From Vibrio cyclitrophicus (GTDB lineage: Bacteria; Pseudomonadota; Gammaproteobacteria; Enterobacterales; Vibrionaceae), in assembly GCF_024347435.1 (NCBI RefSeq), contig NZ_AP025480.1, forward strand, positions 2,170,001 to 2,234,000: a stretch of 64,000 nucleotides of DNA, written 5' to 3'. Below, one piece after another: positions 42,376 through 49,373 of the stretch (the first letter of the stretch is position 1; every line of letters starts with the position of its first letter). Position numbers and translations under genes: made by a program. The notes under the pieces are model-generated. The model searched no databases. It worked only from the letters and a program-made list of their open reading frames with translations, and was not told the DNA's origin.

Positions 42376-42759
42376 TTACTGCTCTCGGAACTGTACTCGG
42401 AACTGAGTTGCGCTCGGGTTTACCGACACTTCCGACAACGAAATACTTTCAAAACCACGAACAATTGCTTGCTTCCAAGGACCTTGTTTTAAATTGACCT
42501 CAAGACCAGCATCGTCGTACCAGTAGAAACGATAAAGGATATTTTGATCGCCTTTATAGTTACTGTTCAAACGAACAATTCCTCTAGTATGACCATCGAT
42601 TTGATCAGTACGGATATCTTCAACCAATAAACGGCTACCCAATACCTTGTCACCAAAGAAAACGTTCTGAGTCAGGCTATCAACTCTTACGCCAGCTGTA
42701 TTATCAGCACACCCAGCCAGAGCCATAACCGCTGCGAAGCTCACTAACCACTTTTTCAT
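42376..42759 (-). CDS. ycfL: YcfL family lipoprotein
   Basis: 127 residues with a lipoprotein signal (MKKWLVSFAAVMALAGC, lipidated Cys at 17) and a DUF1425/YcfL domain (YRFYWYDDAGLEVNLKQGPWK). YcfL lies next to lpoB in E. coli too; no biochemical role is established. Its start overlaps the stop of the upstream gene by one base, indicating coupling. Confidence 0.88.
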   Translation of the reverse strand: MKKWLVSFAAVMALAGCADNTAGVRVDSLTQNVFFGDKVLGSRLLVEDIRTDQIDGHTRGIVRLNSNYKGDQNILYRFYWYDDAGLEVNLKQGPWKQAIVRGFESISLSEVSVNPSATQFRVQFREQ

Positions 42760-44150
42760 TACAGCCTCCCTAGCTGTTTATGCCACATTGTTGCGTTGTT
42801 CCCTTGTCGAGAAATCCAAACCAAGGTGGTCTGCCCTTCTCGTATATCGAAATCATACGTTTTAGCGCCTGCTTCTAACGTATATTGACCACTATTTGCT
42901 ACAAACGTGCTGCTCTTAATCTCGGCAGGTAATGATTGCCAACTGCGCGTGTCTGGTTGCTCAGTAAAGGTGTTCCACACATTAAACAGAATGTTACCTA
43001 CATCGTTACCTTGAGTGGTTTCTTTACGGATGCGATCTTTTGCCACAACACGCAGCGCTTGGCGAATAACGATACTCGTCATTCGTTCAGACAAATCATT
43101 CTGAGCCATCGCGTTCACGTCAGTAATTAAGCTTTCAGACAAAGGCTGCCCATTGATTCTTAAAGCAGAAAAACGTTCGACGTTTTGGTTTGGATAGTAT
43201 GGCAGCGCCAAAGAGTATATTGCTCCCTGATCACGACTGTCATAAATAGGTAAATCTAGTCGCCAACTATCCATCGCTTGCACTGCGCTTTGCTCTTGAA
43301 GCACAATCACTCGCCCTTGTCCGTTACCAAGCTTCGACGATTGCTTATAGCGCTTTTCTAGCGTTGCTAAATCTTGTCGCATTCCTAAACGAGCGGCTGT
43401 CGACATTGTTCTATCGATAATTTCTTGGTTTTCTGGCATCACGGCCAGAGCACGTCGATAGTCAACGTAGGCACTGTTTAAATCATTTGATGCTTCATAA
43501 AGCAGCCCAGACAAAAACATCAAATAGGCATTTTGTACCGATTGCAGCTTTTTACCCGCATCAGGGTAATTCGCAAGAATGCTGCCTACATTGGCTGATA
43601 AACCTTGAGACTTGGCATCACTCGCTGCTCTTTCTAACTCAGCTTCACGTTGTTTCTTTGCTTGTTCTTGTACTTGGTTGGCGCGACGCATTTCGATCAC
43701 CGCACCTTCTAAATCGTTTTTCTTCAAGTAATTTAAGCCGAGATAAAGATGAAGAAAACCCAATTCATAATCTGGCGGGACATACTCGGTAATATTGTCA
43801 TTCACAGCCAATGCACCAACGCTGGTCGCACTGTCTGAGATTGAGATCACGGCTTTGCTTTGTTGATCTCTTACTGCCTGGTCGGCCAACTCAAACGAAG
43901 ACTTACTCTCCGGATACTTTTGATCAAGCAGGTTAATTCTGCCCCTTTCAAAATTATCAAGAATGTCTCCTGCTGCGTAATCTGGTAACTCTTGTTGAGC
44001 CTCTGAATAATCTCCAGACTTCACTGCTTGGTATATCTCTTTGTTTTGAGCGCTATAATGGCTGAACAGACTTCCTGCCGACATACTCGCGCATCCCGCA
44101 GTCAACGCCGATAGCAGGGCAATGGAAGCGAATCTAAACTGTTGCTTCAC
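42759..44150 (-). CDS. COG3014-family lipoprotein with TPR-like repeats
   Basis: 463 residues. MKQQFRFASIALLSALTAGC is a lipoprotein signal (lipidated Cys near 20). The region about 25-270 is helical with TPR-like units (YELGFLHLYLGLNYLKKNDLE near 125-150 and the unit near 205-240), and the C-terminal part (about 285-460) is beta-rich. It is the first gene of the cluster COG3014-ycfL-lpoB. Its partners suggest a place in PBP1B activation or envelope assembly, but no function is known. Confidence 0.85.
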   Translation of the reverse strand: MKQQFRFASIALLSALTAGCASMSAGSLFSHYSAQNKEIYQAVKSGDYSEAQQELPDYAAGDILDNFERGRINLLDQKYPESKSSFELADQAVRDQQSKAVISISDSATSVGALAVNDNITEYVPPDYELGFLHLYLGLNYLKKNDLEGAVIEMRRANQVQEQAKKQREAELERAASDAKSQGLSANVGSILANYPDAGKKLQSVQNAYLMFLSGLLYEASNDLNSAYVDYRRALAVMPENQEIIDRTMSTAARLGMRQDLATLEKRYKQSSKLGNGQGRVIVLQEQSAVQAMDSWRLDLPIYDSRDQGAIYSLALPYYPNQNVERFSALRINGQPLSESLITDVNAMAQNDLSERMTSIVIRQALRVVAKDRIRKETTQGNDVGNILFNVWNTFTEQPDTRSWQSLPAEIKSSTFVANSGQYTLEAGAKTYDFDIREGQTTLVWISRQGNNATMWHKQLGRL

Positions 44151-44393: not shown

Positions 44394-44744
44394 CTAGCTA
44401 ATCAATAGCGGTCCAAGCGGGCGACCACCAACCAAGTGCATGTGGATATGGTATACCTCTTGGCCACCGTGAGAGTTACAGTTTACGATAAGACGATAGC
44501 CATCTTCTGCGATGCCTTCTTCTTTTGCTAACTTACGAGCCACGGTAAACATGCGCCCCATCATGGCTTCATCTTCCACTTCAACATCATTCGTTGTCGG
44601 AATCAGCTTGTTAGGGATAATTAGAATATGACTTGGCGCGCGAGGGTTAATATCGCGAAACGCCGTTACTAAGTCGTCTTGATATAGTAGATCTGCAGGG
44701 ATTTCTTTATTAATGATCTTACTAAAGATGGTTTCTTCAGCCAT
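44394..44744 (-). CDS. hinT: HIT-family purine nucleoside phosphoramidase
   Basis: 116 residues with the HIT motif [10 protein letters not shown] near the C-terminus (catalytic histidine triad) and the conserved [20 protein letters not shown] start. HinT hydrolyses AMP-lysine and other nucleoside phosphoramidates. It lies upstream of the lipoprotein cluster, as ycfF does in E. coli, with 243 bases in between that show no gene. Confidence 0.96.
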
Positions 44745-45020: not shown

Positions 45021-47012
45021 ATGAAGGGATCTGTGATCAAGCGTATGTACGCTGGTTTCGCACTGATCATCATCATGTTCGCAGTCACGATAACCATCAT
45101 GATGAACAGCATGAATCAGATACATAGCAATTTTGAGAGTGTCTCAGAAACCTCACTACCACTTGTTGCGCTTTCAAATCAAACAAGTGTTCAACTACTT
45201 TCTGCTGATAAGTCATTCAAGGACTTCCTAACCACACAAAACGCTGAGCGTATGTCTGCAATGCGTACAGAGTTTGCCTCATCACAAAACTCTTTTTCTG
45301 AAGTGCTTGGAAGCTTGGAAACCGCGAGTCAAAACAACGCTACACTTGTTGAACGTATTGCCCAGTTAAGAGCGATGGAACAGCGTTACTTCGCCGAAGC
45401 CGATGAAGCGATGAACAACTACGTGGCAATGTTCGAAGCACAAGAACAAGTACAAAAAGCATCACGTGATTTTCAACGTCTACACTCCGAATTGACTGTA
45501 GGTATGAAAGAGTACGTTGCTGACCAAAAAAGCATTTCTGTAAAAGTAATGGCGAAAAGCTACTTCATTAAACTGCAAGACGCTGAGGTGATTACTTCAG
45601 ATGCGCTAGCTAGTTCTGATGTGGCATTTGTGCAAAAAGCCGTTAACCAAAACAAAAAGGCCGTTACTCACCTTAACTACGCTTATCGCGGGCTATCAAC
45701 GCAATTACCTGCACTTAAAAATGTCTTCGATGAGTCAGTTCAAAAATTCACAAAAGACGTTGGTCAAAAAGGCGGTGTCTTAGACAAGCACAACAACTAC
45801 TTACAGGCGAAACAAGCGTTATACGTCAACATTGCCAACTTAGCCGTTGAAGTAGACCAAGCCATGGCCGTACTTGATTCATTCAATGTAACCGCAGAAG
45901 AACAACTTAACTCTTCATTGGCAGACGCAAGCAGCATTTACGACAAGGGTTTGTTCAATGCCATCGCAATCGGCGTTGTGGTGACGCTGTTTGCTGCAGC
46001 GATTGGATACCATATTGCCAACAGTGTAAGAGAGCCATTAACACGCATTCTGAAAACACTTGAAGGCTTAACTGAAGGTGATATGACGCAACGCATCGAT
46101 ATCCGTTATAACAACGAGTTCAGTCGTGTAAGTGGCCACATAAACACCCTAGCCGACAACCTTCACAATATCTTAGTTAAGTTGAATGATGCTTCAGATG
46201 ACCTAACTAAAACGGCAAGCGTGAACCAAAAAACCTCATCAGAGACTCAGGCTCAATTGAACAGCCAGCGCGAGCAAACAGCGACAGTCGCGACGGCAAT
46301 GACAGAAATGTCTCACTCGGTACAAGAGGTAGCGAACAGCGCGCAAAGTTCATTGACTATGGTTCAACAAGTGGAATCGGCTTCTGAGTCTGGTCGCCAG
46401 ATCATGAACACCAATATCAGCACTATCAATCAACTTGAATCACGTCTTACTGAATCGGTCAGCGCGGTGGGCGAACTTCAACAAATGAGTAGCCAAATTG
46501 GATCGATTCTTGATGTCATCCGCGGCATTGCTGAACAAACCAATCTACTTGCATTGAATGCAGCGATTGAAGCAGCACGCGCCGGCGAACAAGGTCGAGG
46601 CTTTGCAGTCGTTGCCGATGAAGTTCGAGTGCTGGCGCAAAAGACCACACAATCGACCTCGGAAATCGAGACGATGATCAGCAATCTGCAATCAAGCTCG
46701 AAAACAGCAAGCAATGTGATTGAAAGCTGCATGAGTGATATGGACATGTCGGTTGAACAAGCTTCAAGTGCCAACAGTGCGATGGAAGAGATCCAAGCAT
46801 TGATTCTAGAGATTAGCCACATGAGTACACACATATCTCAAGCAGCCGCTGAGCAAAGTGAAACATCTGGCGATATCGCACGTAACATCGAAGACATCAA
46901 CCATATCGCTGATGCAAGTTACCAAGCAATGTCGTCGATTGCAGAAGCCAGCCAAAACCTAACAGTACTTGCGAATCAGCAAGGCGATTTAGTTCATCAG
47001 TTCAAACTATAG
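45021..47012 (+). CDS. methyl-accepting chemotaxis protein
   Basis: Chemoreceptor of 663 residues. Transmembrane helix 1 lies at about residues 10-29, a periplasmic helical sensor domain at 30-308, helix 2 at about 311-332, then a HAMP segment and the cytoplasmic signalling coiled coil with the hairpin tip [20 protein letters not shown] (starting near residue 503). There is no C-terminal CheR pentapeptide. The sensed ligand is unknown; the sensor domain looks like a long helical bundle. GGGAGAAAG is the ribosome site. A terminator follows. Confidence 0.95.
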
Positions 47013-47081: not shown

Positions 47082-47116
47082 AACAAGGGCAACTTTTATC
47101 AAGGGTTGCCCTTGTT
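47082..47116 (+). terminator. intrinsic terminator of the chemoreceptor gene
   Basis: AACAAGGGCAAC and GTTGCCCTTGTT form a perfect 12-bp stem followed by TTTT. Confidence 0.92.
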
Positions 47117-47208
47117 TTTTATGAGCTTTGTCATTATATGATTATTAAGGCTTGCTGTTTTCCGTTTATCTTTCACCTTTATGAGCGAGCCGCTAATAAG
47201 GAATTTAT

Positions 47209-48375
47209 ATGGCTGTTCATGTTGGCATTATCGATCAAGACCCCATTCGCTTGCTCACCCCACTACTTGATAACCGAACGATCAGTACTCACATCGTGTT
47301 TATCGGAGACAAGAATCAAGTCAGTATGTACAAACGTTTAGAAAGCGTTTTACAAAAACGCGACATTACCAGTGAGTTTTTCGAAATTCCTACCCTCGTA
47401 AATACATCCGCAATTAAAGAGTCTATCCAAAACCTTGCTGAAGACCTCAAAGCTCGTGGAGAAGAAGTGAAACTCAACGCAAGTTGTGGTCTTCGTCACC
47501 GCCTACTTTCTGTCTACGAAGTATTTCGTACTTACCACTGGCCAATCTTTGTTGTTGAACCAAACAGTGACAAGCTGTGCTGGCTTTATCCGAATGGCAA
47601 AGAAGATGCACAAGTACAAGACCGTATTACCATCGACGACTACCTAACGGTGTTCGGTGCTCGTGGTGAGTTCAGCGATGTACAGCTGTCTCCTCAACTT
47701 GATCAGAAGCTTTATGAACTGGGCGAACGCTGGGCAAGTAATGCACTAGAACTCGGCCCTGGCCTTGCTACATTGAACTACCTTGCAACGACTTGCCGTA
47801 AAGAACAGAGGCTTGATGTGGGGTTGTCTGAGAAGCAACAAGGTTATCGCGAGCTAAACATGCTGTTAAGTGATTTGGTGGAAGCTAAAATTGCCACTTA
47901 TGATAATGGTATTTTGACGTTCGCCAATGAAGATGCACGACGCTTCTCTAATGGCGAATGGCTAGAGACTTTGGTTCACAGTACCGTTAAGCAAATCCAA
48001 GATGACATGCCAACCATTCAAGATCGCTCTTTAAATGTTCAGGTATACCGCCAATTAGGTGAACGCGAGGTTCGTAACGAACTCGACGTGGCATCAGTAG
48101 TGAATAATAAGCTCCACATCATCGAATGTAAGACCAAAGGCATGCGTGATGATGGTGATGACACTTTGTACAAGCTGGAATCGCTAAGAGACCTATTAGG
48201 CGGCCTACAAGCACGTGCTATGCTGGTGAGCTTCCGCCCTCTTCGTCATAACGACATCACACGAGCAGAAGATCTTGGCCTTGCATTGATTGGCCCTGAC
48301 GAATTAAAAGATCTTAAAACACACCTAGCGGCATGGTTTACCGCCGCCGGTGGTGATGAAGATTTAGAGTGCTAA
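47209..48375 (+). CDS. CARF-domain PD-(D/E)XK nuclease, DUF1887 family (VC1899-like)
   Basis: 388 residues. The N-terminal ~150 form a Rossmann-like CARF sensor (MAVHVGIIDQDPIRLL); at the position where related CARF proteins have a TGGT/K-type loop it reads NASCGLRHRL (residues 90-99). A winged-helix-like middle (about 165-260) links to a C-terminal restriction-type nuclease domain with the complete pattern E291-x-D293, then E306-x-K308 (in HIIECKTKG). The V. cholerae ortholog VC1899 has a solved structure, and Card1 of type III CRISPR is a member of this family. No CRISPR array or cas gene is present here, so the activating ligand is unknown. Confidence 0.88.
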   Translation: MAVHVGIIDQDPIRLLTPLLDNRTISTHIVFIGDKNQVSMYKRLESVLQKRDITSEFFEIPTLVNTSAIKESIQNLAEDLKARGEEVKLNASCGLRHRLLSVYEVFRTYHWPIFVVEPNSDKLCWLYPNGKEDAQVQDRITIDDYLTVFGARGEFSDVQLSPQLDQKLYELGERWASNALELGPGLATLNYLATTCRKEQRLDVGLSEKQQGYRELNMLLSDLVEAKIATYDNGILTFANEDARRFSNGEWLETLVHSTVKQIQDDMPTIQDRSLNVQVYRQLGEREVRNELDVASVVNNKLHIIECKTKGMRDDGDDTLYKLESLRDLLGGLQARAMLVSFRPLRHNDITRAEDLGLALIGPDELKDLKTHLAAWFTAAGGDEDLEC

Positions 48376-48614: not shown

Positions 48615-49373
48615 TTAAAGCATTTTACGTGCAGCTTCTACAACCACTTTGATTGAACGAGCTTCTGTTACTTTTAGCGTTTCGTGATCAGGCGTCTCTT
48701 TTTGAGTACGGTTGATGATTACACCAGCAACACAACCTGCTTTCAGACCAGAACTTGCACACATAGTTAATAGCGTTGCAGATTCCATTTCGAAGTTTAA
48801 AACGCCCATATCTTGCCATTCTTGCATAGAACCTTGGAAACGCTTAACAACGCGACCAGAGAACGTGTCGTAACGCTCTTGACCAGGATAGAACGTATCG
48901 CTTGATGCCGTTACACCCATGTGAACTGTTGCACCTGATTCGTCAACTGCCGCTTTCATTGCTGTTGCTACTTCGAAGTCAGCTACCGCTGGGAACTCCA
49001 TTGGCGCAAAGTGCAGGCTAGCACCGTCTAAACGAACAGAACCTGTAGAAACGATCATGTCACCCACGTTTACATGTGGCTGGATAGCACCAGTAGTACC
49101 AACACGAAGGAAAGTACGAACACCAAGTTGAGCAAGCTCTTCAACAGCAATAGAAGTAGATGGGCCGCCGATACCTGTTGAACATACAACAACTGGCTTA
49201 CCGTCTAGCTCTGCGCGATAAAGCGTATATTCACGATGGCTAGCAAGAAATACTGGATTCTCCATCTCTTCTGCGATTTTTTGTACACGAGCAGGATCAC
49301 CAGGGATGATCGCAAGAGTAGCACCGTTAAGATCTGCTTCAGTAACACCTAAATGGAAAACAGCTTGAGACAT
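48615..49373 (-). CDS. udp: uridine phosphorylase
   Basis: Cleaves uridine to uracil and ribose-1-phosphate. 252 residues with the phosphate-binding [27 protein letters not shown], the PNP/UDP signature [16 protein letters not shown], and [10 protein letters not shown] that binds ribose. Strong ribosome site AAGGAGCAAAC-ATG. A CRP box lies 102-119 bases upstream, as expected for a CRP/CytR-controlled nucleoside gene. Confidence 0.97.

What the first reader, a model, noticed from the sequence alone, without database searches (positions are those of the whole stretch)
47209..48375. Stand-alone CARF-nuclease with an intact catalytic pattern and no CRISPR partner
The protein joins an N-terminal CARF-like fold to a PD-(D/E)XK nuclease with the full E291/D293...E306-x-K308 pattern. 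Family relatives such as Card1 are switched on by cyclic oligoadenylate made by type III CRISPR complexes. This window has no cas gene or repeat array, and the loop NASCGLRHRL differs from the usual TGGT-type loop in related CARF proteins. The ligand and biological role are therefore open; it could be part of a CRISPR-independent defence or stress pathway conserved in Vibrio, since V. cholerae VC1899 is an ortholog in a similar neighbourhood.
Basis: partly seen in the sequence, partly recalled or inferred. Interest (0 to 1): 0.8.

Follow-up and report, generated by a model that had tools for sequence, protein, structure and literature searches.

The report
Core CRISPR-free CARF nuclease of Vibrionaceae
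Most members of the Vibrio family keep a nuclease that looks like a CRISPR alarm-triggered enzyme, but with a re-shaped and strictly conserved signal pocket and usually no CRISPR system to feed it, so it probably answers an unidentified non-CRISPR signal.

Summary
Window 47209-48375 (+) encodes a 388-aa CARF + PD-(D/E)XK protein with E291/D293 and E306-x-K308, 85% identical to V. cholerae VC1899 (1XMX). Its genome has no RAMP, Cas1 or SMODS match, and its three Cas10-palm matches are all GGEEF proteins. My data argue against 'degenerate'. 290 of 296 Vibrionaceae genomes have a match; 130 of 130 distinct orthologues keep every catalytic residue and D9, D11, P12, R14, N90, A91, S92, G94, R96; median dN/dS is about 0.02, like neighbouring genes. 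Vibrionaceae plus 60 other relatives form a group (99/98) whose pocket differs from that of 17 mostly CRISPR-linked relatives (S9, Q11, GGTK), while catalytic residues are invariant in 84 of 84. Best reading: a type III effector-type nuclease re-purposed for a non-cA4, non-CRISPR trigger. Ligand and substrate are unknown. One group member (L178) does sit beside a III-D locus. Novelty: variant of a known kind.

The parts
47209..48375 (+). CARF + PD-(D/E)XK nuclease gene (DUF1887/Card1-Can2-like; orthologue of VC1899), 388 aa
47209..47658 (+). CARF domain, aa 1-150 (boundary approximate)
   Evidence: PF23400 aa 23-145; strands and helices of the model; most CARF-only structures align to about aa 1-129
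47233..47250 (+). strand-1 pocket loop D9-Q10-D11-P12-I13-R14; D9, D11, P12, R14 invariant in 130 of 130 (Q10 85%, I13 67%)
   Evidence: the 17 CRISPR-type relatives have S9 15/17, Q11 13/17, P14 14/17
47476..47496 (+). strand-4 pocket loop N90-A-S-C-G-L-R96; N90, A91, S92, G94, R96 invariant, C93 129/130, L95 127/130
   Evidence: CRISPR-type relatives G93 16/17, T95 12/17, K96 15/17
47659..47928 (+). linker and helical region aa 151-240, including W175 (7/7 Vibrionaceae and 58/60 group relatives against 3/17 CRISPR-type)
47929..48243 (+). PD-(D/E)XK nuclease core aa 241-345
   Evidence: PF09002; mean conservation 0.946, 43 invariant of 105 positions
48079..48087 (+). catalytic E291-L292-D293
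   Evidence: invariant 130/130; E291 and D293 84/84; named as active site for VC1899 in PMC7969007
48124..48132 (+). catalytic E306-C307-K308
   Evidence: invariant 130/130; E306 and K308 84/84
47149..47191 (+). 5' leader stem-loop GGCTTGC(T)...(A)GCGAGCC, loop mostly 20-31 nt, just upstream of a Shine-Dalgarno-like AAGGA (47198-47202, by eye)
   Evidence: all 79 leaders (window + 78 named Vibrio loci): 89.7% of 573 cells paired, 7 of 8 pairs with changes on both sides, slid controls 12-52%; own-genome pattern
47112..47140 (+). promoter-like TTGTTT-17-TATATG, picked by eye; not flagged by the consensus scan
   Evidence: conservation; not listed; inference
44394..44744 (-). HIT-domain protein, neighbour in 77 of 81 loci and 13 of 29 further loci; not claimed as a functional partner
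45021..47012 (+). methyl-accepting chemotaxis protein upstream (73 of 81 loci; missing next to the gene in several Vibrionaceae), followed by a terminator-like hairpin
48615..49373 (-). phosphorylase-superfamily gene ('Udp', uridine-phosphorylase name recalled), convergent neighbour: found in 31 of 81 loci and 19 of 29 loci

Best explanation
It is a CRISPR-independent CARF nuclease of the Vibrionaceae core genome, related to the type III effectors Can2/Card1 and probably derived from that kind of protein. Shown: both domains, intact catalytic residues, family-wide retention, strong purifying selection, a conserved pocket whose chemistry differs from cA4 binders, and no Cas10, RAMP or Cas1 found in this genome. 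Inferred: it works as a CARF dimer in which a small ligand in the cleft between the two CARF domains (D9, D11, R14, N90-R96) brings the two nuclease domains together and switches on metal-dependent cleavage, more likely of RNA than of DNA (VC1899 showed only residual RNase in vitro), as a rarely used stress or infection response. The ligand is not cA4. My guess is a nucleotide- or RNA-end-derived signal made by ordinary cell machinery; the Q-to-D change at position 11 would suit a guanine-bearing ligand, but that is speculation.
For: 290 of 296 Vibrionaceae genomes have a match; in the order 46 of 394 match, 34 of them Vibrionaceae and 12 among the 360 remaining genomes. The 11 Vibrionaceae genomes that I accept as carrying a Cas10-like gene all have a match too, and so do 279 others. 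130/130 distinct proteins keep D9, D11, P12, R14, N90, A91, S92, G94, R96 and the catalytic residues; nine published CARF pocket positions are on average 94.0% conserved against 80.2% for the CARF domain (permutation p 0.018). Median dN/dS 0.0205 over 239 pairs (CARF 0.035, nuclease about 0); in a second, overlapping set 0.019 against HIT 0.015, Udp 0.022, MCP 0.023, 463-aa gene 0.037. Protein distances follow those of the neighbours (Spearman 0.55-0.73). 67 rows split from 17 at 99/98, with a set-wise pocket difference and no catalytic change in 84. VC1899: no activation by cA4, weak residual RNase (PMC7969007). A CARF outside CRISPR can sense RNA: that of RtcR binds 5' tRNA fragments with cyclic-phosphate ends (PMC7790460, abstract).
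Against: I know of no ligand, activation or phenotype for any member of this group. VC1899 was inactive on supercoiled DNA and nearly inactive on RNA in vitro. Acidic D9/D11 in a pocket is unusual for a nucleotide receptor; the site could instead bind metal, protein or RNA. L178, inside the group, lies beside a type III-D cluster. The pocket test is only p 0.018 on the published residue list, in which D34 (66%) and Q10 (85%) vary; the invariant set quoted was picked after seeing the alignment. The direction from CRISPR effector to stand-alone rests on an unrooted tree with long branches. Six Vibrionaceae genomes lack a match, two of them not small (3.1 and 4.4 Mb).
Confidence: 0.55

Rival explanations
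1. Degenerate remnant of a CRISPR effector, 'cast adrift' and not retaining its function (suggested in PMC7969007).
For: VC1899 shows only weak residual RNase not regulated by cA4, and its pocket does not fit cA4.
Against: Near-universal retention, dN/dS about 0.02, invariant catalytic and pocket residues, a conserved leader stem.
Confidence: 0.05
2. A housekeeping RNA-processing or nucleic-acid-repair nuclease without a diffusible second messenger: the CARF pocket binds an RNA end, a protein or a metal, or is itself catalytic.
For: Core gene among housekeeping-type neighbours; acidic D9/D11 invariant in Vibrionaceae; RtcR shows that a CARF can read RNA ends.
Against: The conserved residues lie in the two CARF ligand loops and keep the basic R96 and the CARF signature; no substrate is known.
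Confidence: 0.25
3. A CRISPR-independent anti-phage abortive-infection effector that senses a phage-induced nucleotide.
For: Relationship to Can2/Card1/Cdn1; of the 17 relatives outside the group in the tree, 15 have CRISPR arrays or cas genes nearby.
Against: Defence genes usually turn over and move (general knowledge); this one is nearly fixed in the family, had no match in 50,697 phage records and 1 weak match in 72,556 plasmid records.
Confidence: 0.2
4. It still serves type III CRISPR systems that come and go on mobile elements, perhaps with another cOA size.
For: At least 11 of 296 Vibrionaceae genomes carry Cas10-like genes; L178 is next to a III-D cluster.
Against: 279 genomes have a match without an accepted Cas10; the pocket residues differ from those of the 17 CRISPR-type relatives examined; G013 carries a separate Can2-like gene about 11 kb from its Cas10-like gene.
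Confidence: 0.08

Closest known systems
VC1899 (PDB 1XMX), V. cholerae DUF1887 protein
   Same: Orthologue, 85% identical, same domains and catalytic residues; the pocket residues published for VC1899 (D9, Q10, D11, R14, D34, L95, R96, V115, P118) are those of the window protein.
   Different: Nothing essential; what is added here is family-wide conservation, selection, the group-wide pocket comparison and the leader stem.
Can2 / Card1 / Cdn1 (PDB 7BDV, 8Q3Z, 8BAO, 6WXW, 6XL1, 9U49)
   Different: They are type III CRISPR effectors, several solved with cA4; the Vibrio protein lacks the Ser, Thr and Tyr cA4 contacts, has Arg for the Lys, and has no CRISPR locus.
RtcR CARF
   Same: A CARF domain working outside CRISPR.
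   Different: Transcription activator, not a nuclease; its CARF binds tRNA fragments (PMC7790460, abstract).
Daci_4198-type PF09002 genes in a secretion-like / Ter cluster
   Same: PF09002 proteins not linked to CRISPR, named in PMC4012209 (passage).
   Different: Embedded in a predicted DNA-transfer cluster; not examined here. L179, beside a TraG/VirD4-like gene, may be similar.

Membership tests
CARF superfamily | Rossmann-like CARF fold | tested here: met
CARF superfamily | [DN]X[ST]XXX[RK] after strand 4 | tested here: met
   N90-A-S92-CGL-R96, N90/S92/R96 130/130; signature from PMC4012209
CARF superfamily | alcohol side chain (S/T) at end of strand 1 ('often', not strictly defining) | tested here: not met
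   D9 in 130/130
PF09002 Card1-type endonuclease | profile match and E-x-D...E-x-K site | tested here: met
   E 3.8e-64; residues invariant
cA4-activated Can2/Card1 effector | cA4-contact residues (SthCan2 Ser19, Thr42, Lys99, Tyr118) | tested here: not met
   D9, D34, R96, V115; only R96 keeps the property
cA4-activated Can2/Card1 effector | activation by cA4 | not testable with these tools
   negative for the 85% identical VC1899 in PMC7969007
type III CRISPR ancillary protein | type III locus or Cas10 in the genome | tested here: not met
   no RAMP, no Cas1, all three Cas10-palm matches are GGEEF proteins
CBASS effector | CD-NTase partner | tested here: inconclusive
   no SMODS match in the own genome; other CD-NTase models not tested
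anti-phage defence system | protects against phage | not testable with these tools
   no assay; PADLOC matches are by homology only

The most novel reading that the evidence does not exclude
A whole bacterial family has turned a type III CRISPR effector nuclease into a core, vertically inherited receptor for an unidentified second messenger (or RNA-end signal), with a pocket rebuilt around D9/D11/R14/R96: a CRISPR-free CARF signalling pathway waiting for its ligand.
Probability: 0.4. Interest if true: 0.85.

Novelty: new variant of a known kind. Interest (0 to 1): 0.58.

Why it matters
CARF proteins are read almost entirely through CRISPR. If this one is a maintained receptor for another molecule, a non-CRISPR nucleotide or RNA signal exists in nearly all Vibrionaceae and has been missed, and the best-known orphan (VC1899, structure released in 2004) is not a dead relic but a usable handle to find it. 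The pocket residues named here give the mutants, and the family-wide conservation predicts that the ligand maker is also a core function.

Tried and rejected
Type III CRISPR hidden elsewhere in the genome: rejected. The Pfam cut-off of PF22335 is a trap in Vibrio: 200 of 296 genomes pass it, and all three own-genome matches are GGEEF proteins. I therefore did not use that tally. Accepted as Cas10-like: seven genomes at E <= 3.5e-28 (G207, G174, G157, G180, G151, G041, G023); G037, G293 and G268, whose frames I read (GGDD; RAMP-like frames beside them); and G013 (E 1.1e-9, with a RAMP-like hit and an array in the same stretch, but no GGDD in the frame). The local Cas10 HMMs were built from these same frames, so their matching them proves nothing. 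Other matches between E 1e-9 and 1e-3, such as G210 (7.1e-10), were not read, so 11 is a lower bound.

CBASS partner: nothing found for SMODS only; mCpol and other cyclases were not searched. Mobile origin: not supported. MCP as operon partner: rejected, because it is absent next to the gene in several Vibrionaceae (e.g. L124, L127, L131, L132) and a terminator-like hairpin lies between. A fixed HIT-CARF-Udp order across the family: too strong; in the 81 loci HIT is found in 77 but Udp only in 31, and in the 29 loci HIT in 13, Udp in 19, one or both in 24. Leader stem as a regulon motif: the pattern hits 5 distinct places in the genome, one of them this gene (reversed-pattern control: 1 hit), not followed further. 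Rfam: nothing reached a gathering score. Viral fold library: only weak matches, TM 0.27 or less by query.

L178: checked whether the gene is core in its genus; it is in 1 of 3 genomes, so L178 may be a genuine CRISPR-linked member of the group and counts against a clean split. L224 and L225 have a CRISPR-type pocket but no CRISPR gene found nearby. Fisher test of pocket type against CRISPR context outside Vibrionaceae: 15 of 17 against 1 of 5, p 0.009, not corrected for relatedness.

Leader count: my first alignment (35 of 79 leaders) left out eight loci without clear arms or with long loops and gave 93.2% of 280 cells paired; I repeated it with all 79: 89.7% of 573. L065 and L097 were left out of both for short upstream sequence.

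Literature: searches 'VC1899' (8 papers), 'DUF1887 Vibrio' (1), 'CARF domain superfamily classification' (42), 'CARF Vibrio orphan' (36), 'Card1 Can2 Vibrio' (9), 'RtcR CARF' (14), 'CARF independent of CRISPR' (0). In the listings, in passages of PMC7969007 (with its sections 21 and 22 whole), PMC6981274, PMC4012209, PMC3974666, PMC8211822, PMC12669027 and PMC11229360, and in the abstract of PMC7790460, I saw no statement of family-wide conservation or of this pocket comparison. Supplements were not readable, and papers under other licences (such as the 2020 CARF classification, recalled) were not found here.

Full report

What was already known. PMC7969007 (passages; sections 21 and 22) reports that VC1899 was purified and tested: it did not nick or degrade supercoiled DNA, had weak residual RNase not regulated by cA4, and shares none of the cA4 contacts of SthCan2 apart from R96 in place of a lysine. 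The authors call it an orphan and say that it may be a degenerate defence enzyme 'cast adrift'. PMC6981274 (passages) had earlier modelled cA4 into VC1899 with few clashes, noting that binding was not shown. PMC4012209 (passages) already notes PF09002 members outside CRISPR and the [DN]X[ST]XXX[RK] signature, which N90-A-S92-CGL-R96 fits.

No CRISPR found in this genome. The own genome (5.28 Mb, 3 contigs, 100% complete) has one copy. RAMP, Cas1 and SMODS searches found nothing. Three Cas10-palm matches passed E 1e-3; all three are GGEEF proteins of diguanylate-cyclase type. The window has no repeat array and no Cas10 by local HMMs.

Core gene. 290 of 296 Vibrionaceae genomes have a match (283 of 289 high-quality ones); the six without include genomes of 1.0, 1.1, 2.1 and 2.6 Mb, but also one of 3.1 and one of 4.4 Mb. 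I extracted and checked reading frames only for the 157 loci used below, not for all 290, and G016 has the gene split in two frames. In the wider order 46 of 394 genomes match, 34 of them Vibrionaceae; the 12 others lie among the 360 remaining genomes (the list of non-matching genomes was cut, but its first rows, ordered by kinship, show no Vibrionaceae). At least 11 of the 296 Vibrionaceae genomes carry a Cas10-like gene and all 11 also have a match to the nuclease. Its presence does not track type III CRISPR. G013 even has a second, 25% identical Can2-like gene about 11 kb from its Cas10-like gene and close to an array.

Selection. Of 157 orthologous loci (130 distinct proteins) 102 of 388 positions are invariant, among them E291, D293, E306, K308 and, in the otherwise variable CARF domain (mean 80%), D9, D11, P12, R14, N90, A91, S92, G94 and R96. 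Nine CARF positions published as lining the modelled pocket average 94.0% against 80.2% (permutation p 0.018); two of the nine, Q10 and D34, vary. The set from D9 to R96 given above was picked after seeing the alignment. Median dN/dS is 0.0205 over 239 pairs (CARF 0.035, aa 151-240 0.014, nuclease about 0), and in a second, overlapping set of 80 sequences (76 pairs) 0.019, against 0.015 for HIT, 0.022 for Udp, 0.023 for MCP and 0.037 for the 463-aa gene at 42759-44150 (called COG3014 in my scripts, a recalled label). Pairwise protein distances correlate with those of the four neighbours (Spearman 0.63, 0.55, 0.63, 0.73), as vertical inheritance would give. A decaying gene would not look like this.

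Position. In 81 loci (80 named, plus L189) HIT is found beside it in 77, the MCP in 73 and Udp in 31. In 29 further, more distant Vibrionaceae loci, read 1.5 kb to each side, HIT is found in 13, Udp in 19, one or both in 24. The surroundings are thus partly conserved and housekeeping-like. No repeat array and no Cas10 was found in the 80 named loci of up to 13 kb. Phage records hold no relative and plasmids one weak one.

A group with a different pocket. I gathered relatives from the order and class and from proteins. A tree of 84 rows separates 67 (7 Vibrionaceae, L178-L182 and 55 database proteins; the few that carry names are Thalassotalea, Pseudoalteromonas, Shewanella, Paraglaciecola and a gammaproteobacterial bin) from 17 others at 99/98 (unrooted, several long branches). 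Of the 17, 15 lie near CRISPR arrays, Cas10-like genes or other cas genes; L224 and L225 do not. Comparing positions, CRISPR-type, then group relatives outside Vibrionaceae, then Vibrionaceae: position 9 S 15/17, G/N/D 57/60, D 7/7; position 11 Q 13/17, D 45/60, D 7/7; position 14 P 14/17, A 46/60, R 7/7; position 93 G 16/17, N 44/60 (G 7/60), C 7/7; position 96 K 15/17, R 54/60, R 7/7; position 115 Y 16/17, I/V 57/60, V 6/7; position 117 H/D/N 17/17, E 53/60, E 6/7; position 175 W 3/17, 58/60, 7/7. E291, D293, E306 and K308 are unchanged in 84 of 84. So the pocket differs as a set while the blade is kept. Outside Vibrionaceae surroundings are known for five group members: in L179-L182 I found no Cas10, array or RAMP/Cas6-like hit; L178 lies beside a type III-D cluster with Cas5, Cas7, Cas6 and a CARF-TM gene and is found in 1 of 3 genomes of its genus. 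L178 is the main fact against a clean split.

Leader. Upstream of the gene, after a terminator-like hairpin, a stem GGCTTGC...GCAAGCC with a variable, mostly pyrimidine-rich loop precedes the Shine-Dalgarno-like site in most of the named Vibrio loci. On all 79 leaders at hand 89.7% of 573 cells pair, 7 of 8 pairs show changes on both sides, and slid controls reach 12-52%. Stems of 7 pairs with at least 4 G-C occur as the best stem in 76 of 108 leaders, against 3-8 in five sets of shuffles; anchored arms in 63 of 79. Among 29 more distant Vibrionaceae leaders only L124 has arms of this sequence as its best stem. The window's leader alone folds only moderately better than shuffles (z -2.0). No Rfam match reached a gathering score. 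It most simply protects or tunes the mRNA; this is inference.

Mechanism. By homology with Can2 (inferred, not shown): a dimer with the ligand between the CARF domains; binding closes the nuclease domains on nucleic acid. The ligand is not cA4 (published for VC1899). D9/D11 with R14 and R96 suggest a ligand with both hydrogen-bond donors and phosphate; a guanine nucleotide or an RNA end would fit such a pocket, but nothing here tests it.

Verdict. Real, maintained, CRISPR-free in this genome, ligand unknown; a variant of a known kind rather than a new kind.

Noticed in passing
window 47149-47191: 5' leader stem-loop of the CARF nuclease gene, conserved with compensatory changes in most named Vibrio loci, variable loop, no Rfam family over its gathering score.
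   Followed up: partly
L175 2396-4123 and 14236-15447 (G013): A Vibrionaceae genome with a Cas10-like gene, a repeat array and its own Can2-like nuclease in addition to the core orthologue.
   Followed up: partly
L178 8769-9911 and 9943-18749 (G389): A group member with the altered pocket next to a type III-D cluster including a CARF-TM gene: possible CRISPR user of the altered pocket.
   Followed up: partly
L179 7749-10485 (G434): A group member directly behind a TraG/VirD4-like coupling ATPase, near a DUF4062 gene: possible other partner.
   Followed up: no
table; L246, L247, L248: The Cas10 palm model PF22335 passes its cut-off in 200 of 296 Vibrionaceae genomes; the three own-genome matches are GGEEF proteins, so annotation by that cut-off alone would probably over-call Cas10.
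   Followed up: partly
genomes G128, G201, G268, G286, G295, G015, G057, G099, G113, G129: Extra matches to the nuclease in some Vibrionaceae genomes (three in G201); paralogues, Can2-like genes or fragments.
   Followed up: no
L224 and L225: CRISPR-type-pocket relatives with no CRISPR gene found nearby; L224 lies near a mad3/mad8-like gene and an EF-G-like gene.
   Followed up: partly
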